Below, one piece after another: positions 13,798 to 37,383 of a stretch of 64,000 nucleotides of DNA. The DNA lies in assembly GCF_004118375.1 (NCBI RefSeq), contig NZ_SDHX01000002.1, positions 857,001 to 921,000 on the forward strand. Reading direction: 5' to 3'. Within the stretch, counting starts at the first letter, position 1. The number at the start of each line of letters is the position of its first letter. The notes under the pieces were generated by a model, which made no database searches, had not been told where the DNA came from, and saw only the letters and a list, made by a program, of their open reading frames with translations. Made by a program: the position numbers and the translations under genes. The stretch comes from Oleiharenicola lentus (lineage in GTDB: Bacteria; Verrucomicrobiota; Verrucomicrobiia; Opitutales; Opitutaceae).

Positions 13798-14237
13798 TGC
13801 GGATTGAAACCGGCGAACTGGACGCGATTAGTGTATGCACATGGGCGGCCCGACAGGCAAACAATCGATCAGAGCCCGTTGACTCAAGCCGAAGTTTGAT
13901 CCCACTCGCCGTAAACGGTGCGGTGAAACAGGTGGTTATCGGTAACGTGAGAGGCGGCCAAAAATGATATCCGCAAGGGCAGTGGACGCAAGACCGACAC
14001 GGGATAGGAAATTACAATCGGCGTGGCAACCGCCGTGCTGGTCAGCGCACCAAGCGTGCGGACGGAGTGACGGCGATTCATTCGGCGCGGGTATGGTGAA
14101 AACGATGTTTGGCCGCCAAAACGTCGCTAGCACGGTAACGAATGCTAGCCCGAAGCCGGACAGATTACTGCATTCTTCGGCGCGGGCGACGGCCGCTTGC
14201 TACGCACCGGCGGTTCTGGCCACATGGCGGCGCCCCC
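13798..14237. other. Intergenic region upstream of the GH106 gene
   Basis: About 440 bases with mixed composition and no convincing coding frame. It holds one copy of the shared GATTACTGCAT site at 14163. It probably contains the junction between the mobile segment and the catabolic cluster, but I could not locate a repeat that marks it. Confidence 0.4.
14163..14173 (+). promoter_or_regulatory. Shared operator-like site GATTACTGCAT
   Basis: Matches the G(T/A)TTACTGC(A/C) motif seen upstream of five other transcription units and the LacI gene. It points toward the GH106 gene and ends 64 bases before its preferred start, which also argues against the earlier ATG at 14142. Confidence 0.5.
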
Positions 14238-17200
14238 ATGATGCAGCCCGCACGCCGCCTTCTTGTCTGCCTGTGGCTCCTCGCGTGCCTTTTGCCACTC
14301 CCGTCGGTCGCGACCGCGCCCACGTTCGATGCGGTACTGTTCGCCGAGCCGCCGGCGGAATCCAGGCCACGCGTATGGATGCACCTCATGAACGGCAACA
14401 TCTCCTCGGCAGGCCTCACAAAGGACTTCGAGGCGCTGGCCGCGGCTGGCGTGGGCGGCGTGATTCTCTTCAGCGTGGACTACGGCATTCCCGCTGGCGA
14501 CGTCGCCTTCAACTCCGACCGCTATCGCGCGCTGCTAACGCACGCCGCCCGCGAAGCCCGGCGCCTCGGCCTCACGCTCGGCCTGCACAATTGCGATGGC
14601 TGGTCCTCCAGCGGCGGGCCGTGGATCCAAGTCGAAGATTCGATGAAACGCCTCGTGTGGAGCGAGTCCGTGGTGCGCGGCGGCACGGCCCAGCGACTCC
14701 GTCTCCCCCAGCCCACGACCCAACTCGGCTTCTACCGCGAAATCGCGGTGCTCGCCTGCCCGGCAGAGGAAAGCGAACTCGCCGCTCGCGCTGCGCCCCT
14801 CACGCTGCGCTCGTCGCCGTCCGTCGCCGCGCTCGACCGCCTCCGCGCAGACGATGGCGATCAGGTCGTCGCGCTCTCCGCCTCCGACGGCCAGACACCG
14901 TGGCTCGAGTTTGCCGCCAACACTCCGTTCACTGCCCGCTCGCTCACGCTGGAACATCGCTCGCGTCACGCGACGGCCCAGCTGCTGGCTTCCGACGACG
15001 GGGAAACTTTCCGTCCAGTCACCGCGCTGGCCTCCTATCGCACCGGCAAAAGCACGGGCGTGTTCACGGCCAGTTTCGCGCCGGTCACCGCACGGGTGTT
15101 CCGCGTCGTTTTCTCGCGCACGGTCGAACTCACCCACGCCGAGCTTTCAACCTCTCCCCGTTTGCCAGACTGGCCGGCACGCAACGGCATGGCGCGTCTC
15201 CCCGCCGATCAGCTCGCGCCACTCGTCTGGTCGGCCACGCCAGATAAGCCGACGCGTGTGCTGCCGGGGCAGCCGGACAAGGACGGCCATTTCACGGTCG
15301 ATCTGCCCGCCGGCGTCTGGCGCATCCTGCGTTTCGGCTACACCACGACTGCCGCGACCAATTATCCCGCGACCGCCGCGGGGCGTGGTTTGGAGTGCGA
15401 CAAGTTCGACCGCCGCGCGCTGGAAAAACACTTCGCCGCCTACCTCGATCGCGTCGCCGCGGACTGCGGTGACCTCACCAGCACGACGCTGAAGGATGTG
15501 GCGCTCGATAGCTACGAGATGGGCGGGCAGAACTGGACTGCGGATCTCGCCGCGCAATTCAAGGCCGAGCACGGCTACGACCTGTTGCCCTATCTGTCGC
15601 TGTTGGCGGGCTATTGCCAGGGCGACGCCACCGAAGCCGACGCGGTGCTGCGCGATTTCCGCGGTTTCCTCGCCGGACTGATGCAGCGGAATTACTACGC
15701 CGCGTTCACAGAGCTCTGCCATCGCCGCGGACTGCAGTCGTATATCGAGCCCTATGGCTTTGGGCCTTTCGATCACGTGACCGCGGGCGGCGCGGCGGAC
15801 GTCCCGATGGCCGAATTCTGGCTCGATCTGAAGGAGGGCACGAACTTCGAGGCCGCAATATCGGCCGCCCACATCTACGGCAAGTCGGTCGTCTCAGCGG
15901 AGGCGTTCACGTCGTGGAGCGACGTCAACTGGAAGGTTCATCCTGCCCGACTCAAATTCCCCGGCGACTACGCGTGGGCGCGCGGCGTGAACGAATTCTG
16001 CCTGCACCGCTTCGCGCATCAGGCCAACACCCACGTCGTCCCCGGCATGACGATGGGCGACATCGGCTCGCAACTGGACCGGACGCAGACGTGGTGGCCG
16101 ACCGCAGGCCGTGAGTGGCTCCGCTACGTGGCCCGCGGCTCTTATCTGCTACGGCAGGGGCAGCCGGTCGCCGACGTGCTCATCTACACCGGCGAAACCT
16201 CGCCGCAACCGACGCCCACGCGCGAACAGCTCGCGCTGCCCGCGGGCTATAACTTCGACCTGCTCGACACGCCCGCCCTGCTGCATCGGCTCTCGGCGCG
16301 CGCCGGCCGCCTCGTTTTTCCTGAGGGCACGTCGTATCGCCTGTTGCTGCTGCGGAACTCCGCCCAACTCAGTCTGCCCGTGCTGCGCCGGCTGCGGGAA
16401 TTCGCCGCGGCGGGCGTGCCCATCCTCGGCGATGCACCGACAGCCTTGCGCGGTCGCGCGCCGTCATCTGCCGAGCGCGAGGAATTCGCCGCCCTCGTGG
16501 CTGCGCTCTGGCCGCCCACGAACGTCGGTCCGGGCCAAGTGCCACTCGCCACCTCGCCCACCGAGCGAGCGGCCCAGTTTTCCCGCTGCGGGCTGACGCC
16601 CGATCTCGTCATCGCAGACGCGCCCGACGCGCCCTTCGCGCACCGGCGCACAGACGACACCGACTTGTTCTTCGTGCTGAATCCGGCAGCGGACGCGCGG
16701 GTGCTCCGCTGCTCGTTTCGCGTCACCGACCGCCGGCCCGAACGCTGGCACGCGGAGACCGGCGAGATTCAACCGCTCGACACCTACGCCAACCGCGGCG
16801 ACCGCACCGAGCTTGAGCTCGCCCTGCCGGCGCATGGTTCGGCGTTCATAGTGTTTCGCTCCGACAGCGGTTCGCGAGATTCCGCCAGCGCGGTGAAGTC
16901 GTCCGTCGCTTCCGCCACGCCGCGTCCGCCGCTCGCGCTCGCGGGTCCGTGGCAGGTTACCTTCGAGCCCGTCGGCGCCGCGCACTGGCAGACGTCATTG
17001 GCTCGCCTGAGCGATTGGAGCGAGGACCCGCGTCCCGCCGTCCGCTACTTCTCCGGCACCGCCGAATACCGCACCGAGTTCACCGTGCCAGCTGACTGGC
17101 TGGCGGACGGGCTTGCGGTGTCGCTTGATCTCGGCCGCGTGGAAATTTCCGCCGAAGTCACACTCAACGGCCACCCGCTCGGCCTGCGCTGGTCCGCGCC

Positions 17201-17492
17201 CTACGCGTTCGACGCCACCCGCTGGCTGCGACCGGGCGAGAACACGCTGTGCGTGCGCGTGACCAATCTTTGGACGAACCGACTTATCGGCGACAATCAA
17301 CTGCCGCGCACGGATGGCTACGCGCCGGACGCGCCGATGCCGCGCTGGTATGTCGAGAACCAGCCACCACCGCCCAGCGCGCGCACGACGTTCACGACCG
17401 TCGATTTCTACGAGACCGAAACCGCGCTGCTTCCGTCCGGCTTGCTCGGTCCGGTGACGCTGGTGCAGGAGCGTGCCGCGACGCGACGTTGA
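14238..17492 (+). CDS. Secreted GH106-type glycoside hydrolase (alpha-L-rhamnosidase-like)
   Basis: A 1084-residue protein with an N-terminal signal peptide (RRLLVCLWLLACLLPLPSVA). The start of the mature region, PRVWMHLMNGNISSAGLTKD followed by AAGVGGVILF, is the hallmark of GH106-like enzymes, which cleave terminal alpha-L-rhamnose from plant or microbial glycans. A central catalytic barrel is followed from about residue 890 by a beta-sandwich, galactose-binding-like domain (AEYRTEFTVPADWL, VEISAEVTLNGHPLGLRW). The start at 14238 was chosen because the signal peptide begins there and the operator-like site lies just upstream. Family membership is confident; rhamnose specificity is inferred. 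Confidence 0.82.
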   Translation: MMQPARRLLVCLWLLACLLPLPSVATAPTFDAVLFAEPPAESRPRVWMHLMNGNISSAGLTKDFEALAAAGVGGVILFSVDYGIPAGDVAFNSDRYRALLTHAAREARRLGLTLGLHNCDGWSSSGGPWIQVEDSMKRLVWSESVVRGGTAQRLRLPQPTTQLGFYREIAVLACPAEESELAARAAPLTLRSSPSVAALDRLRADDGDQVVALSASDGQTPWLEFAANTPFTARSLTLEHRSRHATAQLLASDDGETFRPVTALASYRTGKSTGVFTASFAPVTARVFRVVFSRTVELTHAELSTSPRLPDWPARNGMARLPADQLAPLVWSATPDKPTRVLPGQPDKDGHFTVDLPAGVWRILRFGYTTTAATNYPATAAGRGLECDKFDRRALEKHFAAYLDRVAADCGDLTSTTLKDVALDSYEMGGQNWTADLAAQFKAEHGYDLLPYLSLLAGYCQGDATEADAVLRDFRGFLAGLMQRNYYAAFTELCHRRGLQSYIEPYGFGPFDHVTAGGAADVPMAEFWLDLKEGTNFEAAISAAHIYGKSVVSAEAFTSWSDVNWKVHPARLKFPGDYAWARGVNEFCLHRFAHQANTHVVPGMTMGDIGSQLDRTQTWWPTAGREWLRYVARGSYLLRQGQPVADVLIYTGETSPQPTPTREQLALPAGYNFDLLDTPALLHRLSARAGRLVFPEGTSYRLLLLRNSAQLSLPVLRRLREFAAAGVPILGDAPTALRGRAPSSAEREEFAALVAALWPPTNVGPGQVPLATSPTERAAQFSRCGLTPDLVIADAPDAPFAHRRTDDTDLFFVLNPAADARVLRCSFRVTDRRPERWHAETGEIQPLDTYANRGDRTELELALPAHGSAFIVFRSDSGSRDSASAVKSSVASATPRPPLALAGPWQVTFEPVGAAHWQTSLARLSDWSEDPRPAVRYFSGTAEYRTEFTVPADWLADGLAVSLDLGRVEISAEVTLNGHPLGLRWSAPYAFDATRWLRPGENTLCVRVTNLWTNRLIGDNQLPRTDGYAPDAPMPRWYVENQPPPPSARTTFTTVDFYETETALLPSGLLGPVTLVQERAATRR

Positions 17493-17501
17493 GCCGGCGC
17501 C

Positions 17502-18359
17502 TCACCACCAGCCGTTGTTAGCCGCAGCGAGCACTTCCTCGAGTGGGGGCAGCTCAGGAATCCAGCCGCGCTCCCATTCGAGGCAGACGACCCCGGAGAA
17601 TCCATCCCGCGTCAGCAGCGTCCGCAACTCGGACATCGGAAACTCACCGAACCCCGGCAGCACGTAACGAAATTCGCGGCCCATGATCGCCACGCTGTCC
17701 TTCACGTGCACATGTGCTGTGTGGCGGCTGATCGCCGCCCAAGTCGTCGCCAGCGACTCGCCCCCGCGTTTCCACGTGTGATGCGCATCCCACAGCAGCC
17801 GGCAGCGCGGCTCCGCCGCAAGCAACCGGCTCAGCGGCGCCGCCCGCAGCAGGGAATCGTGCGTCTCCACGATCAGATCGACGTGCAGAGCCCCGCGATC
17901 GCGCCACTCGTGCCACCAGCGGAGCGTGCGCAACGCGGTGCCCAGTTCCTCGTCGTCGGCCCGCGCGCCACCGTCGAAGACCCGCAGGAACGGCACCTCG
18001 CACGCTTCGGCGAAGACGGCGTGCGCCAGCAATTTTTCGCGCTCCTCCGCAGTGTGGCCGATCAGGTGAAATGACGTGTCGAGGACCGCGACCGACGCAC
18101 CAAGCGAGCGGATGCGCGCCGCGAGCGCAGCCGGACCGAGGCCTTGCTGCGCCCAGAGCGCCGGCAAATCGACCGCGCCCTGCAGCATCCGGAGCTCGAT
18201 CGCATCCACGCCGAAGCGCCGCGCGAGCGCCCATGCCTCCGGCAAACCAAGCGCCGGACATCCCAGCGTGGAGAAGCCGCGCCGATACGTGCGCGCGACG
18301 TGCGAGGCGAAAACCGCGTGACGTGCAGCCAAGAAGAAGCGGGGCGGCGATTCAGGCAC
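17502..18359 (-). CDS. Sugar phosphate isomerase/epimerase family TIM-barrel protein
   Basis: A 285-residue protein of the xylose-isomerase-like TIM-barrel family. Typical features are a metal-ligand Glu in LIVETHDSL, Asp-His in LLWDAHHTWKRG, His residues in HTAHVHVKDSV and a C-terminal Glu in VVCLEWERGW. Such proteins isomerise or epimerise sugars or sugar acids. It starts at GTG three bases after the stop of the SGNH esterase gene, so it is the last gene of the leftward operon. The substrate is unknown. Confidence 0.77.
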   Translation of the reverse strand: MPESPPRFFLAARHAVFASHVARTYRRGFSTLGCPALGLPEAWALARRFGVDAIELRMLQGAVDLPALWAQQGLGPAALAARIRSLGASVAVLDTSFHLIGHTAEEREKLLAHAVFAEACEVPFLRVFDGGARADDEELGTALRTLRWWHEWRDRGALHVDLIVETHDSLLRAAPLSRLLAAEPRCRLLWDAHHTWKRGGESLATTWAAISRHTAHVHVKDSVAIMGREFRYVLPGFGEFPMSELRTLLTRDGFSGVVCLEWERGWIPELPPLEEVLAAANNGWW

Positions 18360-18362
18360 GGC

Positions 18363-19022
18363 TCAGATCCCCACGGCGGCGAGCCAGGCCTGCGCCATCA
18401 ATTCGTGGCCGAGCGGCGACGGATGGACGCCGTCCGGCGCCAGCTCAGCGGCCGTGTATTCCGCGAGCGCGGCATCGAAGCACGTCTGATAGGCGACAAA
18501 GGCGGCGCCAAATTCCTGCGCGAGCCGGCGCACGACGACGCTGCGTTCACGCAACTCCGGCATCCATTCGGCCGCGAACTCGCCACCGGGCAGGGCAAAG
18601 GGCTCGCCGAGCACCAGCCGGCACTGCGGACGCGCCGCGCGCACATCGCGCAGGAGCAGACGGTAAATCTCCTCGTAGCGCGCGACACTGACGCCGTTGT
18701 GATGGTTGTAGGCGTGCCAAGTGTCATTCACCCCGACTAGCACGCTGACAAGATCGGGTTGCAGATGGAGCGTATCGCGCGGCCAGCGCGCCAGCAGATC
18801 GACGACGCGATCTCCGCTCACGCCGCGATTGACCAGCCGCCAACCCGCGCGCGGATGCCGGCCGAGCAGCACGCCCGCAATCCGCGTCACGTAGCCCGCG
18901 CCCAGCCCCGCCGCGTCGTTCGGCGCGGGACGGTTGCGGTCGCGACCGGCATCGGTGATCGAGTCGCCCTGGAACAGGAGCAGCGGAGCGGTGGGTAGCG
19001 ATGCTGCAGCGGGAGAAGTCAT
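18363..19022 (-). CDS. SGNH/GDSL hydrolase
   Basis: A 219-residue esterase from the ATG at 19022; the longer frame upstream overlaps the GH27 gene and has poor composition. The SGNH blocks are present: LLFQGDSITDAG (Ser, block I), NRGVSGDRVVDL (Gly, block II), VSVLVGVNDTWH (Asn, block III) and APDGVHPSPLGH (Asp and His, block V). No signal peptide is visible, so it may act in the cytoplasm on acetylated sugars or oligosaccharides. It lies between the GH27 and the isomerase genes in one operon. Confidence 0.82.
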   Translation of the reverse strand: MTSPAAASLPTAPLLLFQGDSITDAGRDRNRPAPNDAAGLGAGYVTRIAGVLLGRHPRAGWRLVNRGVSGDRVVDLLARWPRDTLHLQPDLVSVLVGVNDTWHAYNHHNGVSVARYEEIYRLLLRDVRAARPQCRLVLGEPFALPGGEFAAEWMPELRERSVVVRRLAQEFGAAFVAYQTCFDAALAEYTAAELAPDGVHPSPLGHELMAQAWLAAVGI

Positions 19023-19045
19023 GACGCGGTCGCCAGCAGGGCGGT

Positions 19046-20251
19046 TCAGGGTTGGAGCGGTTTCAAACGCAGCAGGGCGACGTCGTGCGATTCGAGGTGG
19101 AAAACCGAGGGCTGGCGCGTGTCGCCCGCCGCCTTGCCGGTCCACACGTCGGTGATGGTGTATTGCCCGGTGACGGTCCAAAAGCGACCCCACTCGACGG
19201 TGAGGTCAGCAGCGACGGCGCCGGTGTTGAGCACGCAGGCGGCGAGTTCGCCGTTGGAGAGTTCCTTGATCCAGACCTCGATGTTTTTCTCGGGCTCGGA
19301 GAGCGCGCGGTAGCCTTGCTTGCCGAGCGGATCCTGGTCGATGGCGAGAGCGCCCTTGTGCGTGAGGAGTGCGGTGATCTCCGGCTTCTGGGCGCGGACA
19401 TCGTTGCCGGCGATGAGCGGCGCGGCGACCATGCACCAGAGCGCGAAATGCGCGCGCGATTCGGCGTAGGTCAGGCCTGGGTTGCCGACTTCGAGCATGT
19501 CGGGGTCATTCCAGCCGTCGGGGCCGGCGAATTTGTTGATGCCGTTGTCGCCGTTGGTGCGGATGTTGTTGTATTGACTGTCGAGCGTGCGCTTCCAGCC
19601 GGAGCTGCCAAGCGAGGTGCCGTTGTAGGAATCGTAGATGTCCCACGTCGTGCGCCAGAGATGGCCGATCTCCGCGCCCCATTCCCAGGGTTTGTTCTCA
19701 CCCCATTCGCAGATGGCCAGCACGACGGGGCGGCCCGCGGCGTAAAGCGCGTCGCGCATGCGCATGTAGGCGTCCTTCGGGTCGGCAGTGCCGTGGTTGC
19801 ACCAGTCGTATTTCAGGTAATCGACGCCCCATGAGGCGAAGAGCCGCGCGTCCTGAAACTCGTGGCCCCAGCTGCCGGGATAATCCGCGCAAGTGCGCGG
19901 GCCGGCGTCGGAGTAGATGCCGAACTTGAAGCCGCGCGCGTGCAGGTAATCGCCCAGCGCTTTCATGCCACTGGGGAATTTCACCGGATCGGGCACGAGG
20001 TTGCCGTTGGCGTCGCGTTGTTTCATCGACCAGGTGTCGTCGATGACAATGTAGACGTAGCCCGCATCGCGCATGCCGTTGGCGACCATCGCATCGGCAG
20101 TCTGCTTGATAAGGTCCTCGTTGATCTTCTCCTCGAAGTTATTCCAGGAGTTCCAACCCATGGGCGGAGTGAGCGCGAGGCCCTTGAATTTCTGGGCGAT
20201 CGCCGGAGTGAGCGCGCCGAGCGCGAGCAGGATCAGGAGGATTTTTTTCAT
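19046..20251 (-). CDS. Secreted GH27 alpha-galactosidase
   Basis: A 401-residue protein with a signal peptide (KKILLILLALGALTPAIA). The GH27 signature is clear: LTPPMGWNSWNNF, VYIVIDDTWS, FKFGIYSDAGPRTCADYPGS and the nucleophile region VDYLKYDWCNHG. An acidic WRTTWDIYDSYNG segment follows. A C-terminal beta-sandwich closes the protein. The family removes terminal alpha-galactose, sometimes alpha-N-acetylgalactosamine or beta-L-arabinopyranose. It follows the amidohydrolase gene by 13 bases in the same operon. Confidence 0.88.
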   Translation of the reverse strand: MKKILLILLALGALTPAIAQKFKGLALTPPMGWNSWNNFEEKINEDLIKQTADAMVANGMRDAGYVYIVIDDTWSMKQRDANGNLVPDPVKFPSGMKALGDYLHARGFKFGIYSDAGPRTCADYPGSWGHEFQDARLFASWGVDYLKYDWCNHGTADPKDAYMRMRDALYAAGRPVVLAICEWGENKPWEWGAEIGHLWRTTWDIYDSYNGTSLGSSGWKRTLDSQYNNIRTNGDNGINKFAGPDGWNDPDMLEVGNPGLTYAESRAHFALWCMVAAPLIAGNDVRAQKPEITALLTHKGALAIDQDPLGKQGYRALSEPEKNIEVWIKELSNGELAACVLNTGAVAADLTVEWGRFWTVTGQYTITDVWTGKAAGDTRQPSVFHLESHDVALLRLKPLQP

Positions 20252-20264
20252 AGGGTAAAGGGCG

Positions 20265-21392
20265 TCAGGGTTTCGCGGGCGGCGCTGGGTAGTTGGCCGG
20301 CTGGAGTCGGTGCATGAGCTCGAGCGCGTTCGTGCGGTAGAGTTTCTCGAGCGTCTCCCGGCGCAGGCCGAAGCCGGAGAGATTCCACACGTAACAGAAC
20401 TGATCGACGCCGTAGAAATGCTCGTCGGTCGTCTCCAGGATGCGGAACGTCATCTGATACATCTCGGGCGTCAGCTCCATGTCGGTGCCGTAGAAGAGCC
20501 GGTCGCGATGCTTCTCGATGAACGCCGCCGCCGTGCGCGGGATCGCCGCCGTCTCCGCGAGCCGGCCCGCGAGGTCGGCATAGAGATTCGGATAACGGGC
20601 CAGCAGACCGTCGAGTCGCGTGAGATCGTAATCGAGGTTCGCCAGATGGCAGGCGATGATGGTCGTGCGCGGATGGCGGCGCAGCGTCTCCTCAAGCTGG
20701 CCGATCATGCCGTTCAAGTCGATGCGTTCGGGCTCGGAGCCGATCTTCCAGATCGCGGCGTTGGGGATGCCCTCGTTTTTCTCGTCGAGCGGATGATACA
20801 TCCAGATCGGATCAGCCACGTGCAGATTCACCGGCAGGCCGAGTTCCGCACATTTCTCCCAGAGGGGATCGAGCCGCGGGTCCGCGGGATGCACGGGCTT
20901 CGGCAGCGGACGGCCCGGGATGGCGCGCACGAGGCCGAGGCCTTTGTCGCTTTCCTCGCCGACGCCGCGCGCGCCCATGCGCATGCAGCGTTCGAGTTCC
21001 GCCGCCGCCGCCGGGCCGTAGCCAGGCTCCTCGATTCCGGTGTAATCGAAACCGCACCACAGCTCGAAGCGGTTCTTGAACGGCGCAAAGCGAGCGACCA
21101 GCGCATCGAACGCCGGGCCGCTTTCGCCCGTGAGCACGATGGTGCGCTCGATGTTGGCCTCGTCCATCAGCTGCACCCAGCGGCGGATTTCCGCGTCGTT
21201 TTGCACGAAGAACGAATGCGAGTGCATGTCGATCACCGGCACGGCGGCGCGGCGCACCAACGTCTGCTGGATGCGGTAGAGCGACACCGGATGATAGTTT
21301 TTCAGCAGCAAGCGGTCGAACTCCGGCTCGGCACCGAACGACGCTCCGGCGAGGAAAACGCCGGCAAGGAGAGTGAGAAGGGGCTTGTTCAT
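20265..21392 (-). CDS. Secreted amidohydrolase-2 family protein
   Basis: A 375-residue protein with a signal peptide (KPLLTLLAGVFLAGASFG). It has the metal-dependent TIM-barrel hydrolase layout: VIDMHSHSFF (His-x-His), LGLPVNLHVADP, TTIIACHLANLD and RLFYGTDMEL (Asp near the C-terminus). The COG2159 family includes decarboxylases and lactonases, so the substrate is open. It is the first gene of the sub-operon 21392-17502, and a copy of the shared operator-like site lies 110 bases upstream, suggesting its own promoter. Confidence 0.75.
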   Translation of the reverse strand: MNKPLLTLLAGVFLAGASFGAEPEFDRLLLKNYHPVSLYRIQQTLVRRAAVPVIDMHSHSFFVQNDAEIRRWVQLMDEANIERTIVLTGESGPAFDALVARFAPFKNRFELWCGFDYTGIEEPGYGPAAAAELERCMRMGARGVGEESDKGLGLVRAIPGRPLPKPVHPADPRLDPLWEKCAELGLPVNLHVADPIWMYHPLDEKNEGIPNAAIWKIGSEPERIDLNGMIGQLEETLRRHPRTTIIACHLANLDYDLTRLDGLLARYPNLYADLAGRLAETAAIPRTAAAFIEKHRDRLFYGTDMELTPEMYQMTFRILETTDEHFYGVDQFCYVWNLSGFGLRRETLEKLYRTNALELMHRLQPANYPAPPAKP

Positions 21393-21501
21393 CGCGAAAG
21401 GCGGGGTGACGGCGGGGCGACGCGAGACCGGCTCGCCGCGTGCACGCAGAATGATTTCCGGAGGCTGGGGGTGGCAAAAGCGTTCAGGGGGCTTTTTGTT
21501 T

Positions 21502-21511
21502 GGCAGTAAAC
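21502..21511 (-). promoter_or_regulatory. Shared operator-like site (GTTTACTGCC on minus strand)
   Basis: Reads GTTTACTGCC toward the amidohydrolase gene, about 110 bases before its start. It is flanked on the given strand by GGCTTTTT, as is the copy at 27145, so the similarity between these two extends beyond the core. Confidence 0.5.
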
Positions 21512-21522: not shown

Positions 21523-22434
21523 TCACACCGCGCCCCACAACGGCGCGGGATAACGTCCGGTCCGGATCAGTTCGCTGATCGCCGTCTGCGCCGCGGCCAG
21601 ATCCTGCCGATACGTGAGCCCGAACCACGCCTCGGGACTGCGCAGCAACTCGATACGTGCGGCTCCGCGCTCGTTCAAGGCACTGAGCGTAGTCGGAAGA
21701 TAAAACTCGGCCTTCGGGTCGGCGCCACGCGTCCGCAGAAACTCCGCCAGCATCGTTTCGATCTGCCCAAACACCGCCGGCGTGAAGCCCCAGAAGTTCA
21801 TCGACACGATCTCGTCGCCGGTCAGCCGCTGCACTGCGCCCGCGGCATCCACATAGCGCGCGCCACCGGCGGCGGCTTCGATGTTCGTGATCTCGGTGAT
21901 TTGCTGCAGACGGTCATCTGCGCCGACCCGGCAAACGCCACGACTGACCGCGCCGTGCTCGGACAGCGTCTGGCGCAGTTGATAGCCGACCAGCGCATAA
22001 CCCGAACCCGGCCGCGTAAAATGCCCCGCCAGCACCCGATAGCCCGCGGCACCGTAGAAATCGTCGGCGTTGATCACCGCGAAGGGACGCGAGACCGCCT
22101 TCCGCGCCACCCAGACCGCGTGCGCCGTGCCCCAAGGTTTCGCGCGCGCGGCAAACGCGGCGGACGATACCGGAACATCGGCGAGATCCTGAAAAACGTA
22201 GTCCACCGCGATGCGCCGCTCGAGGCGGCGGCCGATGGTGGCGCGGAACTCGTCCTCGATTTCCCTCCGGATGACGAACACCACGCGATCGAAGCCCGCG
22301 CGCAACGCATCGAACACCGAGTATTCGATGATCAGTTCGCCCGCCGGACCGACGGGCTGCACCTGCTTGAGTCCGCCGAAGCGGCTGCCCATCCCCGCAG
22401 CGAGGATGACGAGATCGAAGGATTTGCTGTCCAT
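21523..22434 (-). CDS. Sugar-phosphate nucleotidyltransferase family protein
   Basis: A 303-residue protein from the ATG at 22434. The pyrophosphorylase signature is near the N-terminus (LVILAAGMGSRFGGLKQVQP), with the UTP/sugar site in FAVINADDFYG (Asp-Asp). These enzymes make NDP-sugars from sugar-1-phosphates. The kinase gene two positions upstream resembles NahK, which produces N-acetylhexosamine-1-phosphate, so the two could form a salvage route from free sugar to UDP-sugar. That pathway link is inference. Confidence 0.8.
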   Translation of the reverse strand: MDSKSFDLVILAAGMGSRFGGLKQVQPVGPAGELIIEYSVFDALRAGFDRVVFVIRREIEDEFRATIGRRLERRIAVDYVFQDLADVPVSSAAFAARAKPWGTAHAVWVARKAVSRPFAVINADDFYGAAGYRVLAGHFTRPGSGYALVGYQLRQTLSEHGAVSRGVCRVGADDRLQQITEITNIEAAAGGARYVDAAGAVQRLTGDEIVSMNFWGFTPAVFGQIETMLAEFLRTRGADPKAEFYLPTTLSALNERGAARIELLRSPEAWFGLTYRQDLAAAQTAISELIRTGRYPAPLWGAV

Positions 22435-22459
22435 AGAAATTCCGTTCTGCGCGTGCGCC

Positions 22460-23671
22460 TCACTTGAACCAGTCGAGCGGCACGGCCCGCGCCATCGCGG
22501 CGTAGCCGGCGTCGTTGGCGTGGAGATGATCGCCGGAATCGTATTCCGCGCGCAGCCGCTCGGGATGCGTCGGATCGCGAATGATCTGATCGAAGTCCAC
22601 GACTCCATCGAAGCAGGTGCTGGCGCGGATCCAGGCATTCAGCGCCTGACGCTGCGCCTCCTTCTCCGCGGAGAAATAGCCCGCCCCGGAAAACGGCAGC
22701 AACGTGCCGACATAAACCTTGAGGCCGCGCTCGTGGCCACGCGCCGCGATCTGCTGCAAGGCGGCGATCAAGGCACCGACGCGTGCCGGATCGACGGCGT
22801 GTGTGCCGATGTCGTTGGTGCCCTCCAGCACCAGCAGCGCCGACACTCCGGGGGCGGCGAAGACATCGCGCTCCAGACGCGCGAGTGCGTTTTCCCCATC
22901 GGACAACCAGCGCGCGGGATCGGTCAGCAGGCAATTGCCGCTGATACCCGCGTTCACCACCCCGCGCCCCCGACCGGCCGCATTCAACCGATCCGCGAAT
23001 TGGTCCGGCCAGCGGCGATTCGCATCGAAGGTCGAGCACGCGCCGTCGGTCAGCGAATCGCCAAGCAGCACGATGGCCGAAGCGCGCGCCGGAGCGCGCA
23101 CGCTGAGACCGGAGAGAAAAACCCAGCCGGTAACCTTGCGCGCATCGTCCGGAAAAATTTCCGCTGCGGTCCGGTCGCCGCGCACCGCGTAAACGGCCTG
23201 CAGTGTATCGTAGTGCACGCCGCCCCCGAACGACCGACCGGCCACGTGGAGGCTGACCAGCAGCTCCGCACCGGCCGGCGCCGTGAGCAGGATCGGATCG
23301 CTGAGCACGCGCGCGTTGGGCGTGAGCGTGATTGCGGTCCGCCCACCGAACGTCACCACGCGATCCGATCCAGGCAGCAATCGGCTCCCGCGGTCGCGAC
23401 GCGCGAGATGCACGGCGTCGAGCGTCACCGGCTCCGGATTGTAGGCGTTGGACAGGCACAGGCGGAATTCTTCACCGCCGAGCGAAATGCGCACCGCCTG
23501 CCGCAGCGTTTCGTCATGGAACAGGAAGCCCTCCTTCTGCATTTCCGCCGCGCTCCCGAGTCGCAGCCCGGGACTCGTGCCCCAAGTGCCGACCCAGTGT
23601 GTCGCCGCGCGCACCGAGCCGCTCAACGTCGGAGCCAGCCACACCAGCACGAGAAGAAGCCGGATTTTCAT
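22460..23671 (-). CDS. Secreted SGNH/GDSL hydrolase with N-terminal beta domain
   Basis: A 403-residue protein with a signal peptide (MKIRLLLVLVWLAPTLSGSV). Residues 25-200 form a beta-rich domain beginning THWVGTWGTSP, usual in larger SGNH esterases. The catalytic blocks are IVLLGDSLTDGACST (Ser), VVNAGISGNCLL (Gly), LLVLEGTNDIG (Asn) and SGDHLHANDAGY (Asp/His). It probably removes acyl groups from glycans outside the cytoplasm. It lies 13 bases downstream of the kinase gene. Confidence 0.85.
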   Translation of the reverse strand: MKIRLLLVLVWLAPTLSGSVRAATHWVGTWGTSPGLRLGSAAEMQKEGFLFHDETLRQAVRISLGGEEFRLCLSNAYNPEPVTLDAVHLARRDRGSRLLPGSDRVVTFGGRTAITLTPNARVLSDPILLTAPAGAELLVSLHVAGRSFGGGVHYDTLQAVYAVRGDRTAAEIFPDDARKVTGWVFLSGLSVRAPARASAIVLLGDSLTDGACSTFDANRRWPDQFADRLNAAGRGRGVVNAGISGNCLLTDPARWLSDGENALARLERDVFAAPGVSALLVLEGTNDIGTHAVDPARVGALIAALQQIAARGHERGLKVYVGTLLPFSGAGYFSAEKEAQRQALNAWIRASTCFDGVVDFDQIIRDPTHPERLRAEYDSGDHLHANDAGYAAMARAVPLDWFK

Positions 23672-23684
23672 CGCGAAAACGCGC

Positions 23685-24806: not shown

Positions 24807-24844
24807 GGTGCGAAGGGTTGGAAAACGAGGGCGCGGCGCGCGGT

Positions 24845-25762: not shown

Positions 25763-25777
25763 GGCATGCGATTCGGG

Positions 25778-26965: not shown

Positions 26966-27048
26966 GGGGAAACGACCGACGAGGTCTTTCGCCACCTCAT
27001 GAAACCAAAGCCGGAGACTGTCGAGCTGCCGGCCTGCAGATATGGCTT

Positions 27049-27058
27049 TGCAGTAAAC
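27049..27058 (-). promoter_or_regulatory. Shared operator-like site (GTTTACTGCA on minus strand)
   Basis: Reads GTTTACTGCA toward the GNAT gene, 84 bases before its start. Matches the motif found at five other places in the cluster. Confidence 0.5.
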
Positions 27059-27144
27059 TTGCCCGCGGACCTGGCCGGCAGATTTAGTCAGCGGGTCCGC
27101 CACGTCCGCCGGAAGCTTCCGCGTTTCCTCGCCGGCTTTTTATC

Positions 27145-27155
27145 TATGCAGTAAA
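27145..27155 (-). promoter_or_regulatory. Shared operator-like site (CTTTACTGCAT on minus strand)
   Basis: Second site in the same divergent region, 96 bases from the first. The GGCTTTTT flank is shared with the site at 21502. Confidence 0.45.
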
Positions 27156-27364
27156 GTGAGCGACGCGGCGCGCCTTCGGCGCGTTTCTCCTCTGAAATTC
27201 GCGTCGTAGACAAAGCCGCCTGTCGGCGTTGGTCGCGTTTGCGCGCACACGCTTCGCTTCCCACTTGCGAGCGCGGCGCGGCACTGCGAAGAGCGTCGGC
27301 AATTTCGCGCCCCGCCACCGCAACTCCGGCGAGGCGCACTCACTCCCAGTTTCGCCAAGCCTCC

Positions 27365-31112: not shown

Positions 31113-31145
31113 CTCGCGAAGGCGTGCCGCGCCCTCACGGCACGC

Positions 31146-32552
31146 TCAAGTGCTCCGCTCAGGCGGCGTTTCGCCAGGCGGCTGGTAACCAGCATAGCCG
31201 CCGAAGCGGCGGATTTTGCGCGCCACCACGACGCCCACGGCCAGCACCGCGATGTTCACGATGAAACCGAGCGTGTAAGTGTGGCGGTAAATGTGACCGA
31301 AGGCGTCGAGAAACCAGCCCACCACCGGAGCAAAGACGATCTGCAGCAAAGCCAGCAACATGAGCGCCGCGGAAGAGAACTGCGCAAAGCGCGAGCGCGG
31401 GAACAACCGCTGTCCCAGCGAGGAGACGGCCGTGATGATCATGCCGACAAGGAACGTGTGCAGGACAAAGACCACCGAGAACGTCGCGCCGCTCGTGGTG
31501 ACGAAGCCCGCCACGAGACAGAAAATCGCATACAGCGCCACGCACACCCAGCTGACGCGGAACGGATGGTAGCGATCCGCGAGCGCACCGATGGGATACG
31601 ACATCACCAGCGACAGCAGATAGGAGAACGCGAGCAGCTTGCCGTAGAAGGCCATGTCGACATCGAGACTGCGTGCGAGGTAGATATTGTAGAGGTTGGT
31701 CGGAAAGAACGCGACGTTGACCAACGCGAAGTAGGCGAACACCCAGCGGTAGAACGGCTCCGTGAAGCACTCCGAGAAATAGCGCCGCGCCGCGCCCCAG
31801 CCGCCACCGGGCGGAGCCGCCGCCGGTGGCGGATACTCGCCTTCGGTGACGCGCAGGCACATCAGCGAGAAGCCGACGCCATAGAGCCCGGCCATGCCCG
31901 CGAAGATCAAGGTGTGGTGCGACTCCGCAGCGCCGAGCAGCCAGAGGTTGAAACCCATGCCCGCGAGCAGCGCGAGAATGCGAAAGAGCCCGAAAAAACG
32001 GCCCAGCAGATTGGCCGGCACCACGTCGTTGATGAGTCCGAGAAAAATCACGTTGGCCGTCACAGCGGAGAATTCGAAGACGGTCCAGAAGAGCCCGAGC
32101 AGACAGAGCATCAGCACGTCCTCGCTCCAGTGACCGCCGGTCGGAAGCAGCCGGACCAACCAGGGCGACGCCGCGAGCCCAGCCATGGCCAGCACCGCAA
32201 TCGGCGTGGTGATCATCAGGAACGGAATGCGGCGGCCGTGTTTGCCGCGGTGACGATCAGAGTAGTAGCTCACGATCGGCGCAGCGAAGACGCTCATCAA
32301 ACTCGGAACGGTGCCGAGCAGGAGCCCCGTCACGAGATCGGAGGCACCGTGCTTCTTTAGCAGCAGCTGAACGATAACGGGGATCGAACGATCTTTGATT
32401 AGTGTGAACGTAAAATCACCCCAGAGCAGCCAGAAAAACAGCAGGACCAGGGCACCCTTGCTGTAGCTCAGCGTGCCTATGCGCCACCGCGGGACGGGAG
32501 TGTCGTGGGCCATCTCGGGCGACGCGGAAGGCAAAGAGGAAGGTGGCGACAT
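31146..32552 (-). CDS. MFS transporter, probable sugar transporter
   Basis: A membrane protein of about 468 residues from the ATG at 32552 (a GTG at 32588 would add 12 residues) with 12 hydrophobic segments. The MFS loop 2-3 signature is SYYSDRHRGKHGRR. A second loop ALADRYHPFR lies in the C-terminal half. It likely imports a mono- or oligosaccharide. It follows the TonB receptor gene on the same strand, giving an outer- plus inner-membrane uptake pair. The C-terminus ends in a short charged tail. Confidence 0.83.
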   Translation of the reverse strand: MSPPSSLPSASPEMAHDTPVPRWRIGTLSYSKGALVLLFFWLLWGDFTFTLIKDRSIPVIVQLLLKKHGASDLVTGLLLGTVPSLMSVFAAPIVSYYSDRHRGKHGRRIPFLMITTPIAVLAMAGLAASPWLVRLLPTGGHWSEDVLMLCLLGLFWTVFEFSAVTANVIFLGLINDVVPANLLGRFFGLFRILALLAGMGFNLWLLGAAESHHTLIFAGMAGLYGVGFSLMCLRVTEGEYPPPAAAPPGGGWGAARRYFSECFTEPFYRWVFAYFALVNVAFFPTNLYNIYLARSLDVDMAFYGKLLAFSYLLSLVMSYPIGALADRYHPFRVSWVCVALYAIFCLVAGFVTTSGATFSVVFVLHTFLVGMIITAVSSLGQRLFPRSRFAQFSSAALMLLALLQIVFAPVVGWFLDAFGHIYRHTYTLGFIVNIAVLAVGVVVARKIRRFGGYAGYQPPGETPPERST

Positions 32553-32673
32553 GCGGAGGCCAGAGCGGAAATTAGTCAATAATGGCACTCAGGCAAAACA
32601 GCCCAAGAGCAAAAGCGAACGGCGGCCCACAGCCCCCTGCTGCAAGCCGCCGTGACACTTACACACTAGAGCT

Positions 32674-34935
32674 TCAGAGGCGCGTGGTGATAGTCAGGAT
32701 AACCATGCGCGGATCGCCCCGCGTGTTGACCGAAGGCGTATATTCCTTGTTGGCGATGTTCTTCACCGACAGCGCGAACTCGGTGTTGCGACCGATGATC
32801 TTGGTCGAATAGCCGACCGTCATGTCGAAGAGCGCGTACGGACGGAAATACAGCGCGTTATTTTGGTCGGAGGCTTTCTGGAATCCCTGCCAAGTCATGC
32901 CGCCAGCAATGTAGGCGCTCTTCAGAGGGCCTGAGGGGAAGAAATACTTCGTCCACACACTGCCCATGTTGCCCACCGAGCCGAGGAGCGGCACGCCTTC
33001 GAGCGCGGTGTTCTCGGGATTCCGATAGTAAATGGCGTTTTGGTGGCTGTAGGCGAGGTAGGTCTGCCAGTTGGGAATCGGGCTGAGCACGACATCGAAC
33101 TCGATGCCGCGACTCTGCGTCATGCCGGTCTGCACCGTGCGGAAGGCGAGTTCGCCTGCAGAGTTGAAGGCGGCGATGGACTGGATCAGGTTGTTGTTAC
33201 GAATCTGATAGGCGCTGATCGTGCCGGAGAGCTTGCCGTCAAGGAAGGCAGCTTTCAGTCCAATGTCGTAGCCTTCTCCGATCGGATCCTTTGCGGGTCC
33301 AAGGTAGTTTTCGTCCGCGTCGTAGAGGTCTGCGGAGTTCGGTACGAAGGATTTACTGTAGGCGGCGTAGGCGGATACCTCCGGAGTGATCTTGTAAAGC
33401 ACGCCGACCTGGGGTGTGTTGGCGGAGGAGACATAGGCTGGTAGCACCTCACCGGTGCGCATGTTGGTGGATACGGTCTCCGTTTCCGTGTGACGGAGGC
33501 CGGTGAGGGCGACCAGGTGATCATCAAGGAAGCCAAGGGTCAGACCGCCCCAATATGACTTGATACTGACGTCGTCGTGCCAGTAGGAGATAGTGGGCAT
33601 GATGGGCACTGGCTCGTCGCGGTTCCACGTGGAGGGATTGGAGAGGTCCCAAGCGCGGGGATAGTCGACGGTCGAGGCGCGGTGCTTTTCGTTGTCTGAA
33701 TTCTGACTATCCTCTTGGACGCCGAAAAGGAATTTGGCGGAAACGCCTCCAAACTGATATTTGCCGATCGCCTCCGCGTTGTAGGTTTGGGTGTCGCCCC
33801 AATAGTGGCCGGTGTTGGGGCGGCGCATGAGGGCGTTCTCGGGCTGAATGGCCGGCAGTGTCGCGGTGGCCGCGATGGGCGCGGTGGTAAAGACGCCGTA
33901 GCCGACGATGAAGCGCGCGCTGGTGTAATACTCAATGTCACGCTTGGAGGAGGCGTAGACGAGGCGGGTGTTCCAGTGTTCGCCTATGCCCTGATTGTAT
34001 TCGGCGACGAGATTCCTGTTTTTCGTCTGGCGGTAGTTGGCGTTGGCTGAGGTGTTGAAAGTCCGCGGGAGGCCCGGATAGAAGAGGCCGTTTTTGCTCC
34101 CGTCCGGCAGGCGACTGTCGTAAACGGTCGGCAAGGGATTGAGCAAGGGGCCCTCGTCCTTATCGAATCTCTCGTAGCTGACCATGATCTGTCCGGTCTT
34201 GTTGACCTGCCAGGCCAGGGCCCCGGCGGCGGCCCACCGATTGGCATCGTAAGCATCATAGTAATGTGAGTCCTGACCGGTGGTCAGGCCGAGGCGATAG
34301 CTAAGGCCCTTGGCAATCGGACCGGTGCTATCGAGATTGGCCACGAAGTAATCGTAGCTGCCTCCGCTCAGCGTGAGCGTGTTCAGTTTGTAGCTCAGCG
34401 GCCGCTTCGAGATAACGTTCACGATACCCCCCGGAGAGAGCTGGCCGTAGAGGAACGACGACGGGCCCTTCATCACCTCGACGCGCTCTACCAGAGTTGG
34501 GTCCAGGACCTGCGGACCCGTGAAACCGTTGCGAAGCGGCTGGGTGCCAGCGTCGAAGCCACGAATGGTGAAGTGACTGTTGCCTTCGTCGAAACCGCCA
34601 CCTATGAACGTCACGCCCGGACTGTATTTCACGATGTCGTAGAGGCCGGAGGCGTGCTGATCCTGGATAAATTCATTCGTGAACGCATTCAGCGCGAAAG
34701 GAAGGTCCTTGATCGGAGTGTCGAAGCGGGATCCGGAAACGGAGTTCGAGGCGCGGTAGCCCTGGTCTTTGGAGGAGTTGACGACAAAGGGCGAGAGCAC
34801 GACGGTGTCGTCTGGGCTCGTACTGTCATTCGATGAGGGGTCTTTTTCCGGCGCGGCGGGCTGCACCGATTGGGCGGGCAACTGGATCATCAGCAGCACG
34901 GCCAACGGCAAGCATCGGGTAGTCAGGTGTTTCAT
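32674..34935 (-). CDS. TonB-dependent outer-membrane receptor
   Basis: A 753-residue receptor with signal peptide (CLPLAVLLMIQLPAQSV). The N-terminal DTVVLSPFVVNSSKDQGYRA stretch is like that of Opitutaceae receptors. The plug domain follows (LPFALNAFTNEFIQDQ, FTIRGFDAG, VERVEVMKGPSSFLYGQ, GGIVNVISKRPL), then a 22-strand barrel ending in Phe/Leu-type residues (MVILTITTRL). Sequence resembles the siderophore-receptor subfamily, but its position beside a sugar transporter and LacI regulator suggests a glycan or glycoside ligand. A shared operator-like site lies 106 bases upstream. Confidence 0.88.
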   Translation of the reverse strand: MKHLTTRCLPLAVLLMIQLPAQSVQPAAPEKDPSSNDSTSPDDTVVLSPFVVNSSKDQGYRASNSVSGSRFDTPIKDLPFALNAFTNEFIQDQHASGLYDIVKYSPGVTFIGGGFDEGNSHFTIRGFDAGTQPLRNGFTGPQVLDPTLVERVEVMKGPSSFLYGQLSPGGIVNVISKRPLSYKLNTLTLSGGSYDYFVANLDSTGPIAKGLSYRLGLTTGQDSHYYDAYDANRWAAAGALAWQVNKTGQIMVSYERFDKDEGPLLNPLPTVYDSRLPDGSKNGLFYPGLPRTFNTSANANYRQTKNRNLVAEYNQGIGEHWNTRLVYASSKRDIEYYTSARFIVGYGVFTTAPIAATATLPAIQPENALMRRPNTGHYWGDTQTYNAEAIGKYQFGGVSAKFLFGVQEDSQNSDNEKHRASTVDYPRAWDLSNPSTWNRDEPVPIMPTISYWHDDVSIKSYWGGLTLGFLDDHLVALTGLRHTETETVSTNMRTGEVLPAYVSSANTPQVGVLYKITPEVSAYAAYSKSFVPNSADLYDADENYLGPAKDPIGEGYDIGLKAAFLDGKLSGTISAYQIRNNNLIQSIAAFNSAGELAFRTVQTGMTQSRGIEFDVVLSPIPNWQTYLAYSHQNAIYYRNPENTALEGVPLLGSVGNMGSVWTKYFFPSGPLKSAYIAGGMTWQGFQKASDQNNALYFRPYALFDMTVGYSTKIIGRNTEFALSVKNIANKEYTPSVNTRGDPRMVILTITTRL

Positions 34936-35040
34936 TGGTATGTTGGGTTAACTTGATTCCAAGGTGGCCTTGGGAAACGTGGGCACTAAAACAGCTGCCG
35001 TTTGCCCCACCGGTGAGGTGACTTCAATGCCTTCGCCGGT

Positions 35041-35051
35041 ATGCAGTAATC
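35041..35051 (-). promoter_or_regulatory. Shared operator-like site (GATTACTGCAT on minus strand)
   Basis: Reads GATTACTGCAT toward the TonB receptor gene, 106 bases from its start. An imperfect inverted copy (GGATTATATGC) follows within 15 bases, giving weak dyad symmetry. Confidence 0.5.
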
Positions 35052-36300: not shown

Positions 36301-36318
36301 TCCTCTTCAAGGGCTACA

Positions 36319-37371
36319 CTACCGAGTGGAGCGGCCAGCGATTTCGCTGAAACACGCGAGGGCGCCCGGTACAAATGACCCTTGAATGAGCATGTTTTTC
36401 GTGACCTCGGGCACCCCCCTTTCGCCACGCAGGATCATTCCGGACAGTAATTCCATAGCTGTCCGGCCGATACAGTCTCCGCGCTCGTCTATGCCGCCAT
36501 CAGGACGATTTTGTCCGACGTCGACCAACGCGTAGGCGAAAGGCGGCGGCTCACCGCGGTAGATCCGGCTGACCGCCTCCTGCAAGCGATCAATATAGGG
36601 AGTGATGATAACATCGGGTTTTTCGCGCTCGAGCCAGTTCACCAGCAGTCCGCGATAGTCGAAATTGCCAGGCGGCGTAACCAATGGATGCACGGTCTCA
36701 GTGCCGCCGTAGGCGTTGTGCCAAGCGAGCGCCGCAGTGAAATTATGCCGCACGCGCTGCTCCATTTCATGGGTGATATCGAGCCCGATGCGGCGGTAAC
36801 CGCGGATCGTGAGTTCGCGGCAAAGCAACATCATGTTGTTGAATTGATCGGAAACCACCCGGCAGAACTCCGGACTGATCACCGAGTGGCTGGTCGAGAC
36901 GACAGAGAACTTGTTCCACGCCAGCACATCATCGCATACCATGGGGATGCGCAGCGGCAACAGCAACAATCCCTCGACGCCTCGGCTCAGCAGCACGCGT
37001 TCGAGCCGGTCCGGGCTACCGATGTAATCGGCAAGGTTGATCAGATTGAAACCGAAACCCAACTCCGCGGCGCGAGCCCGGGCCCCCTCGGCGATGCGTC
37101 CGACCCACTCGGTGCGGCGCAACCGGTCCTGATCAGTGAGACCGCAGATCATCGCCTGCAGACGATGCGAGCGCTGAACGCGCAGGTGAGACATGAGTCG
37201 CGACACCGTCGGATCGGGCTTGTAGCCGCGCTTCTTAGCGAGACGTTGGATGCGCTTGCGGGTGGCGACTGAGATCTTGGGGTTGTTGCGTAGGGCGAGC
37301 GAGACAGTCATCGACGTCACGCCGGCCTCCTTGGCCAGCGAACGCATGGTGGGGGCGGGCGAAGAGCACAT
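36319..37371 (-). CDS. LacI-family transcriptional regulator
   Basis: A 350-residue regulator. The helix-turn-helix at residues 9-30 (MRSLAKEAGVTSMTVSLALR) and hinge region (KRIQRLAKKRGYKPDP) are typical of LacI proteins, followed by a periplasmic-binding-protein-like sensor domain. It would respond to a sugar or sugar phosphate. It is divergent from the Gfo/Idh operon. A GTTTACTGCAT site ends two bases from its start codon, which fits autoregulation and makes it the best candidate for binding all six sites. The internal ATG at 37347 is an alternative start. Confidence 0.87.
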   Translation of the reverse strand: MCSSPAPTMRSLAKEAGVTSMTVSLALRNNPKISVATRKRIQRLAKKRGYKPDPTVSRLMSHLRVQRSHRLQAMICGLTDQDRLRRTEWVGRIAEGARARAAELGFGFNLINLADYIGSPDRLERVLLSRGVEGLLLLPLRIPMVCDDVLAWNKFSVVSTSHSVISPEFCRVVSDQFNNMMLLCRELTIRGYRRIGLDITHEMEQRVRHNFTAALAWHNAYGGTETVHPLVTPPGNFDYRGLLVNWLEREKPDVIITPYIDRLQEAVSRIYRGEPPPFAYALVDVGQNRPDGGIDERGDCIGRTAMELLSGMILRGERGVPEVTKNMLIQGSFVPGALACFSEIAGRSTR

Positions 37372-37372
37372 T

Positions 37373-37383
37373 GTTTACTGCAT
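37373..37383 (+). promoter_or_regulatory. Shared operator-like site GTTTACTGCAT
   Basis: Lies directly before the LacI start codon and points toward the Gfo/Idh operon that begins at 37576. It could control both directions. Confidence 0.55.

What the first reader, a model, noticed from the sequence alone, without database searches (positions are those of the whole stretch)
14163..37383. A six-site regulon with the motif G(T/A)TTACTGC
Sites at 14163, 21502, 27049, 27145, 35041 and 37373 match closely (consensus G-T/A-TTACTGC-A/C), and each is oriented toward the gene it precedes: GH106, amidohydrolase/GH27 operon, GNAT operon (two), TonB receptor and Gfo/Idh operon. The last touches the LacI start codon. 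They connect units up to 23 kb apart under one probable LacI regulator. Most sites are single half-sites, not clear palindromes, which is unusual for LacI proteins.
Basis: partly seen in the sequence, partly recalled or inferred. Interest (0 to 1): 0.65.

Follow-up and report, generated by a model that had tools for sequence, protein, structure and literature searches.

The report
LacI regulon in a sugar cluster
Six matching DNA sites in one sugar-degradation gene cluster are very probably the binding sites of the neighbouring LacI-type regulator, and they look like complete, lopsided mirror-image sites of a compact type shared by many relatives rather than odd half-sites.

Summary
Six sites, (G/C)(T/A)TTACTGC(A/C)(A/T)(A/T), lie in five regions before genes, all six pointing at the next gene. 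WTTACTGCMWA occurs 10 times in the 4.71-Mb genome, 5 of them in a 16-kb part of this window. G074, a relative of another genus, holds 6, of which 5 lie in its copy of the cluster. There, for five sites, 64 of 65 motif bases are kept against 408 of 685 flanking ones, although the lacI segment is inverted.

The 'single half-site' reading is not supported. Among 44 distinct LacI relatives (window protein included), 16 of 22 with Leu/Phe in the recognition helix carry at least 9/12 of CTTTAC-N-GTAAAG 1-6 bp before the lacI start; 14 of 19 with Arg carry CGTTA-N3-TAACG (helix register mended by eye). Published rules (Leu instead of Arg: T at -6; Met: TT at -5,-4) predict TTT, as seen. The window sites fit as degenerate versions of this odd palindrome, centred on the T of TTTAC-T-GCATA. 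Binding was not tested; the inducer is unknown. The regulon is a local LacI regulon; the single-base-centred operator is a modest variant.

The parts
14163..14175 (+). operator GATTACTGCATTC before GH106 (start codon 14238/14241)
   Evidence: 10 of 13 bases alike in G074; weakest of the six
21499..21511 (-). operator GTTTACTGCCAAA between the NTP-transferase gene and the amidohydrolase/GH27 genes
   Evidence: 13 of 13 identical in G074, but its flanks are well conserved too (93 of 117)
27046..27058 (-). operator GTTTACTGCAAAG, 50 bp before the GTG start (26995) of the weakly GNAT-like gene
   Evidence: 12 of 13 in G074
27144..27156 (-). operator CTTTACTGCATAG, second site of the same region, 98 bp upstream of the first
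   Evidence: 13 of 13 in G074
35039..35051 (-). operator GATTACTGCATAC, 103 bp before the TonB-receptor start
   Evidence: 13 of 13 in G074
37373..37385 (+). operator GTTTACTGCATAG in the LacI / Gfo-Idh divergent region; read on the - strand CTATGCAGTAAAC ends 1 base before the LacI ATG
   Evidence: 13 of 13 in G074
36319..37371 (-). LacI-family regulator, recognition helix V-T-S-M-T-V-S-L
   Evidence: PF00356 E=1.7e-12; best Foldseek hits of its model are CelR, RbsR, SghR, CcpA, PurR, LacI
14241..17492 (+). GH106 alpha-L-rhamnosidase
   Evidence: PF17132 E=9e-170
17502..21392 (-). amidohydrolase, GH27, GDSL lipase/esterase, xylose-isomerase-like TIM barrel genes
21523..26995 (-). weakly GNAT-like gene, EamA transporter, APH-type kinase, GDSL, NTP-transferase genes
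31146..34935 (-). TonB-dependent receptor and MFS transporter
37576..41032 (+). Gfo/Idh oxidoreductase and BNR/sortilin-type protein, first genes of a + strand run

Best explanation
The six sites are operators of the LacI-family protein encoded at 36319-37371. A dimer binds each as an odd-length pseudo-palindrome, TTTA-CTG-(C)A(T/A)A, in which TTTA is the strong half and the other side the weak half. Without its sugar ligand the protein most likely represses GH106, the two minus-strand runs, the TonB receptor/MFS pair, the Gfo/Idh run and its own gene (the operator abuts its start codon); a sugar from the cluster's substrate would release it. Shown here: the sites, their concentration in the cluster, their conservation, the relatives' operators, and the match between recognition helix and half-site. 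Inferred: binding, repression rather than activation, and the ligand.
For: Concentration in the cluster: 5 of 10 genome-wide WTTACTGCMWA lie in the window, and 5 of 6 in G074 lie in the orthologous 18 kb. The neighbours tested at the five other places are a MoCo-binding-domain protein, a methyltransferase, an AraC-type regulator, an OPT transporter and a histidine kinase. Conservation: 64 of 65 motif bases for five sites against 408 of 685 flank bases, and the 37373 site stays with lacI and Gfo/Idh although that segment is inverted. Relatives: of 22 distinct LacI proteins with Leu/Phe in the helix, 16 carry at least 9/12 of CTTTACNGTAAAG 1-6 bp before the start codon and none carries the Arg-type site; of 19 with Arg, 14 carry at least 9/10 of CGTTANNNTAACG (register mended by eye; narrower count: 15 of 17 and 10 of 11). 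In relatives the site also lies 72-153 bp before a divergent gene in 8 of 16 loci scanned; of six such genes tested, five are TonB-receptor matches above the Pfam cut-off, at 89-121 bp, against 103 bp in the window. Published rules: Leu or Gln for Arg goes with T at -6 (PMC2329647), Met at AA-16 with TT at -5,-4 (PMC2978694); the window LacI has Leu and Met there and its sites have TTT or ATT.
Against: No binding or expression data. All window sites break the palindrome at the same inner pair (A/C), and they match the relatives' consensus at only 6-10 of 12 positions. Two of the six window sites have ATT, not TTT. The six-site layout rests on two genomes: besides the own genome only G074 among 372 genomes of the order has a LacI match at E<=1e-90. 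Of 16 relatives' loci, 7 show only the one place at lacI. Of the motif-free 13-column windows in the four intergenic alignments, 70 of 589 are as conserved (at least 12/13). The GH106 site is 10/13. CTTTACNGTAAAG was read off many of the same upstream sequences that are counted. In one search six Leu/Phe proteins (L029, L038/L111, L041, L048, L049, L142) and five Arg proteins (L055, L127, L130, L132, L136) lack the expected site near the start, and 7 of 19 Arg types also reach 9/12 for the Leu pattern. Placing -6 to -4 on TTT assumes that the half-site is TTTA with a shared central base.
Confidence: 0.85

Rival explanations
1. The sites bind another cluster-specific regulator or an alternative sigma factor; the 37373 site lies beside lacI only because lacI is one of its targets.
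For: The motif is asymmetric and always points at the gene (6 of 6), as a promoter element would.
Against: No conserved second promoter hexamer at a fixed distance in the alignments (by eye); the TATAAT upstream of the 35039 site is absent in G074. Related lacI genes carry the related palindrome directly before their own start, and the motif changes with the LacI recognition helix.
Confidence: 0.1
2. True single half-sites bound singly or with a partner protein, like CytR with CRP.
For: One half (TTTAC) is much stronger than the other. CytR, a LacI-family protein, binds half-sites at variable spacing, as inverted or direct repeats, together with CRP (PMC3454398, passages).
Against: The downstream half (GC plus A/C, A/T) is fixed at one spacing in the 11 aligned sites and lines up with GTAAAG of the relatives' full palindromes. 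The stretch upstream of TTTAC, where a partner half of a GalR-like site would lie, is not conserved (by eye).
Confidence: 0.08
3. Chance matches to a short word in AT-richer intergenic DNA.
For: With one mismatch allowed the window holds 25 matches against 13.5 expected, a mild excess; half of the genome's extended matches lie elsewhere; 28 of 200 family genomes hold more than 5 extended matches, up to 32 (my count from its table).
Against: Concentration in two orthologous clusters and 64 of 65 conserved bases.
Confidence: 0.02

Closest known systems
Local LacI-family sugar regulons (Ravcheev et al. 2014, PMC4052901; passages and sections 7 and 9 read)
   Same: Regulator beside its targets, autoregulation (72% of the LacI-TFs studied there), more than 75% of sites 140-30 bp before start codons, tandem sites.
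   Different: There 1251 of 1303 TFs have even palindromes, 1173 with a central CG; here the operator has a single central base. The word Verrucomicrobia was not found in that main text.
EbgR-like LacI-family operators (Francke et al. 2008, PMC2329647; passages and sections 7 and 9 read)
   Same: Operator with one central base instead of a CG pair; in the same paper, replacement of the -6-reading Arg by Gln or Leu goes with T instead of G.
   Different: EbgR-like TFs are said to lack the hinge alanine and leucine; here a leucine in the hinge stretch is invariant in the sequences aligned (L59), though its register is uncertain. The central base here is not restricted to C or G.
E. coli lac O1
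   Same: Odd, asymmetric operator; its extra central base and asymmetry are described in PMC2978694 (passages).
   Different: By recall of the lac operator, its half-sites lie further apart; here TTA and TAA are separated by 3 bp.
CytR operators (PMC3454398; passages)
   Same: LacI-family protein with degenerate, half-site-like operators.
   Different: CytR spacing varies widely and works with CRP; spacing is fixed in the sites aligned here.

Membership tests
LacI-family transcription factor | N-terminal LacI HTH domain | tested here: met
   PF00356, E=1.7e-12, residues 8-53
LacI-family transcription factor | periplasmic-binding-protein-like ligand core | tested here: met
   No Pfam core domain at E<=0.001, but the AlphaFold2 model (pLDDT 87, pTM 0.74) matches full-length CelR, RbsR, CcpA, PurR and LacI (Foldseek E 1e-15 to 1e-12, TM about 0.55)
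LacI-family transcription factor | palindromic operator with inverted half-sites | tested here: met
   Relatives: up to 12 of 12 to CTTTACNGTAAAG; the window sites are weaker, 3-4 of 6 pairs complementary
LacI-family transcription factor | operator of even length with central CG (typical form) | tested here: not met
   Single central base; TTA-N3-TAA in 18 of 43 and 12 of 40 upstream regions, other spacings in 0-4 each
LacI-family transcription factor | sugar ligand controls DNA binding | not testable with these tools
   needs biochemistry
EbgR-like LacI subfamily | single central C or G in the operator | tested here: inconclusive
   single central base, but A, C, G or T
EbgR-like LacI subfamily | hinge leucine absent | tested here: inconclusive
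   Without a gap L59 falls at the hinge-leucine place (by eye) and is invariant; HMMER instead puts a 4-residue gap there and aligns L63
CytR-type operator | variable spacing between half-sites | tested here: not met
   Spacing is the same in all 11 aligned sites
CytR-type operator | paired CRP sites | not tested
   CRP sites were not searched for

The most novel reading that the evidence does not exclude
A large share of LacI-family regulators in Verrucomicrobiota use compact, single-base-centred operators (TTA-N3-TAA, with T or G outside according to Leu/Phe or Arg in the recognition helix) that stand directly before the regulator's own start codon, while keeping a hinge leucine. They would then bind with half-sites closer together than described LacI proteins and without the central CG step. 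That would allow operators for many carbohydrate regulators of this phylum to be predicted from the sequence before each lacI gene.
Probability: 0.55. Interest if true: 0.55.

Novelty: new variant of a known kind. Interest (0 to 1): 0.42.

Why it matters
The regulon itself is an ordinary kind of thing, now well supported and corrected in its anatomy. The useful extra is the rule behind it: in this bacterial family, and apparently beyond it, the operator of many LacI regulators can be read from the bases just before their start codon, and one helix residue (Leu/Phe or Arg) goes with T or G in the half-site. Francke et al. (PMC2329647) tied loss of the central CG to loss of the hinge leucine; this clade may be a counterexample. 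In two LacI surveys (PMC4052901; PMC2978694) the word Verrucomicrobi(a) was not found in the main text.

Tried and rejected
Motif as a -35 or extended -10 element: looked for a partner hexamer by eye in the alignments, none consistent. Motif as half of a GalR-like site (centre upstream of GTTTAC): the upstream flank is not conserved. Extra sites by matrix scan: 43258 and 23804 score about 12, against 18.5-23.8 for the six; both lie in coding frames and were not added, although 23804 is kept in G074 (320618). A G074 site at 310823 before GH106 (CTTTACTGCGCGG) does not align with 14163 and is not in the list of matches scoring 7 or more, so it was left out of the conservation counts. The open-frame test is uninformative: 19 of the 20 matches outside the window lie in long stop-to-stop frames, but so do four of the five in the window. 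The first conservation count misaligned the 37373 site at the edge (8 of 13); one search repeats it with anchoring flanks. The thought that a cluster found in so few genomes came by transfer: the rpoB region of the two genomes is 88% identical in DNA and the cluster 84%, so common descent is not contradicted.

Rows dropped: one search recognised a LacI start in only 45 rows from the 77 loci, so one search counts 31 distinct proteins. On checking I repeated the count more widely: start found in 58 of 77 loci, 44 distinct proteins, 19 loci without a start. Its pattern put the helix two residues off in nine proteins (L026, L027, L030, L031, L032, L038, L117, L118, L138); I assigned these by eye, and read the gap to the start of L026 and L031. 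Of the 19 loci without a start, L034, L042, L100 and L112 show a CTTTACNGTAAA-type site and L133, L139 and L141 a TTA-N3-TAA-type site by eye, L109 and L128 a variant; in the rest I noted none.

Literature: nine searches. No paper on a Verrucomicrobiota or Opitutaceae LacI operator appeared in those listings; only open-licence papers are held there.
Full report
What was checked. The window is part of a 4.71-Mb genome held in 2 contigs (C2:857001-921000). All six sites are present, within 0-3 bases of the stated coordinates. They lie in five regions outside the predicted coding sequence and each points at the next gene. GH106 most likely starts at 14238/14241: the aligned relative has a matching start and signal-peptide-like stretch (by eye). 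The weakly GNAT-like gene (Pfam E=0.009, below cut-off) was taken to start at GTG 26995.

Is it more than chance? GWTTACTGC occurs 25 times genome-wide and 5 times here (p = 2e-5). The longer WTTACTGCMWA occurs 10 times, 5 here (p = 1e-7). Both patterns were chosen after seeing the sites. In 200 genomes of the family, 155 hold at least one match; by my count from the table 172 hold 5 or fewer and 28 more, up to 32. So the number is not special; the clustering is. G074 has 6, of which 5 lie in C17:318314-336621; I did not examine clustering in the other genomes. The five matches elsewhere in the own genome have unrelated tested neighbours; three of the five lie outside long coding-like frames, so the motif is not confined to this cluster.

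Footprinting. Besides the own genome, only G074, a different genus of the same family, has a close LacI ortholog (87%) among 372 genomes of the order at E<=1e-90. Its cluster aligns over 21 kb at 84% DNA identity, and the lacI-Gfo/Idh-BNR part is inverted. Five of the six sites are conserved: 64 of 65 bases, against 408 of 685 in the flanking intergenic columns (Fisher p = 7e-13). Against this: 70 of 589 motif-free 13-column windows in the same alignments reach 12 of 13, 27 of them around 21503. The GH106 site is 10 of 13 alike.

The regulator and its operator. The LacI has a LacI HTH and, in an AlphaFold2 model from 14 sequences, the LacI-family fold. The sequences before the lacI genes of its relatives gave the key: a palindrome CTTTAC-N-GTAAAG directly before the start codon. 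The widest count (with the helix of nine proteins assigned by eye) covers 44 distinct proteins from 58 of 77 loci. With Leu or Phe in the helix, 16 of 22 (the window LacI and its ortholog included, 9/12 each) have at least 9 of 12 positions 1-6 bp before the start; L048 has 9 of 12 further away; L029, L038/L111, L041, L049 and L142 do not; none of the 22 reaches 9/10 for the Arg-type pattern. With Arg, 14 of 19 have at least 9 of 10 of CGTTA-N3-TAACG; L055, L127, L130, L132 and L136 do not; 7 of the 19 also reach 9/12 for the Leu pattern, because the two patterns are alike. Three others (Lys, Tyr, Lys) have neither. A narrower count (31 distinct proteins) gave 15 of 17, 10 of 11 (5 of 11 also reaching the Leu pattern) and 0 of 3. 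The pattern was noticed on part of these same sequences. L038/L111 reads GTTTACCGCAAT before its ATG, which resembles the window motif.

Spacing. In the named-genome set TTA-N3-TAA was found in 18 of 43 upstream regions of 45 bp, other spacings (N1, N2, N4, N5, N6) in 0-3; the three N6 cases are Arg-type genes whose operator reads N3. In 40 lacI starts that I picked from the list, 12 have N3 (shuffled mean 0.23, maximum 2), N4 four, N5 and N6 one each, N0-N2 and N7 none; for 9 of the 40 no start codon was found and the expected place was used. Similar sites precede lacI genes of Prosthecobacter and Chthoniobacter relatives (L133, L141 and others, read by eye).

Recognition rules. Two published analyses allow a prediction from the protein alone. 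Francke et al. (PMC2329647, section 9): where the arginine that reads G at -6 is replaced by Gln or Leu, the operator has T. Camas et al. (PMC2978694, passages and section 6): Arg at AA-20 goes with G at NT-6, and Met at AA-16 with TT at NT-5,-4. The window LacI has Ser20, Met21 and Leu25 at these places (by eye against VSxxTVSR), so TTT is expected, followed by the A usual in this family (recalled). TTTA is what four of the six window sites show (the other two have ATTA), if the half-site is read as TTTA with a shared central base. The Leu/Arg versus T/G split is the same rule; because relatedness was not removed, it is support and not proof.

Reinterpretation. With the centre on the T of TTTAC-T-GCATAG, the six window sites match the relatives' consensus at 6-10 of 12 positions: the TTTAC side at 4-6 of 6, the other side at 2-5 of 6. 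The 'half-sites' are therefore best read as full but lopsided operators, as E. coli lac O1 is. Some relatives are lopsided in the same direction (CTATAC-N-GTAAAG before lacI: L028, L101, L107).

Likely working. Among 16 relatives' loci scanned, 8 have a divergent gene 72-153 bp from the lacI site. Six of these genes were tested: five gave a TonB plug or barrel match above the Pfam cut-off (89-121 bp), the sixth (L113, 72 bp) a barrel match just below it. Seven of the 16 loci show only that one place; others have one to three more at two mismatches, some in coding frames, some before genes (L102, L104, L110, L122). Here the TonB gene and lacI are 1.4 kb apart, each with its own site, and further sites serve GH106, the amidohydrolase/GH27 genes, the weakly GNAT-like run and Gfo/Idh. 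A site that touches the lacI start codon suits autorepression, and sites 50-190 bp before the other starts suit repression; activation is not excluded. The genes (GH106, GH27, GDSL esterases, a kinase, a nucleotidyltransferase, and further on a glucosamine-6-phosphate isomerase-like and PIG-L deacetylases) suggest a rhamnose- and galactose-bearing, perhaps amino-sugar, substrate. That part is inference.

Known or new. A local LacI regulon is a known kind (PMC4052901). Operators with one central base are known for EbgR-like LacI proteins (PMC2329647), which are said to lack the hinge leucine. Here the leucine L59 is invariant in the aligned relatives, though HMMER places a 4-residue gap in this stretch, so the register, and with it the counterexample, is open. 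I rate the whole as a modest variant of a known kind.

Noticed in passing
window 37417-37422 and 37454-37459: Inverted repeat TTGCCA...TGGCAA in the LacI-Gfo/Idh intergenic region, both arms kept in G074; perhaps a second regulator's site or promoter parts.
   Followed up: no
window 35052-36318: About 1.3 kb between the TonB-receptor site and lacI without an ORF of 120 aa or repeats found; in several relatives lacI and a TonB gene are direct neighbours, so this may be an old insertion or decayed sequence.
   Followed up: partly
window 36322-41800 against G074:C17 332186-337673: The lacI-Gfo/Idh-BNR-epimerase segment is inverted between the two orthologous clusters.
   Followed up: partly
window 6142-12456: Minus-strand ORF of 2104 aa whose only match above its Pfam cut-off is HTH_upst_double_PIN.
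   Followed up: no
L109, L128: LacI relatives with a TMSF helix carry TAAAC-C-GTTTA-like sites before their start, a further half-site variant (by eye).
   Followed up: no
window 23804-23816: GTTTACTTCAAGA inside the kinase coding region, kept in G074 at 320618; a possible weak internal site before the GDSL gene or plain coding conservation.
   Followed up: no
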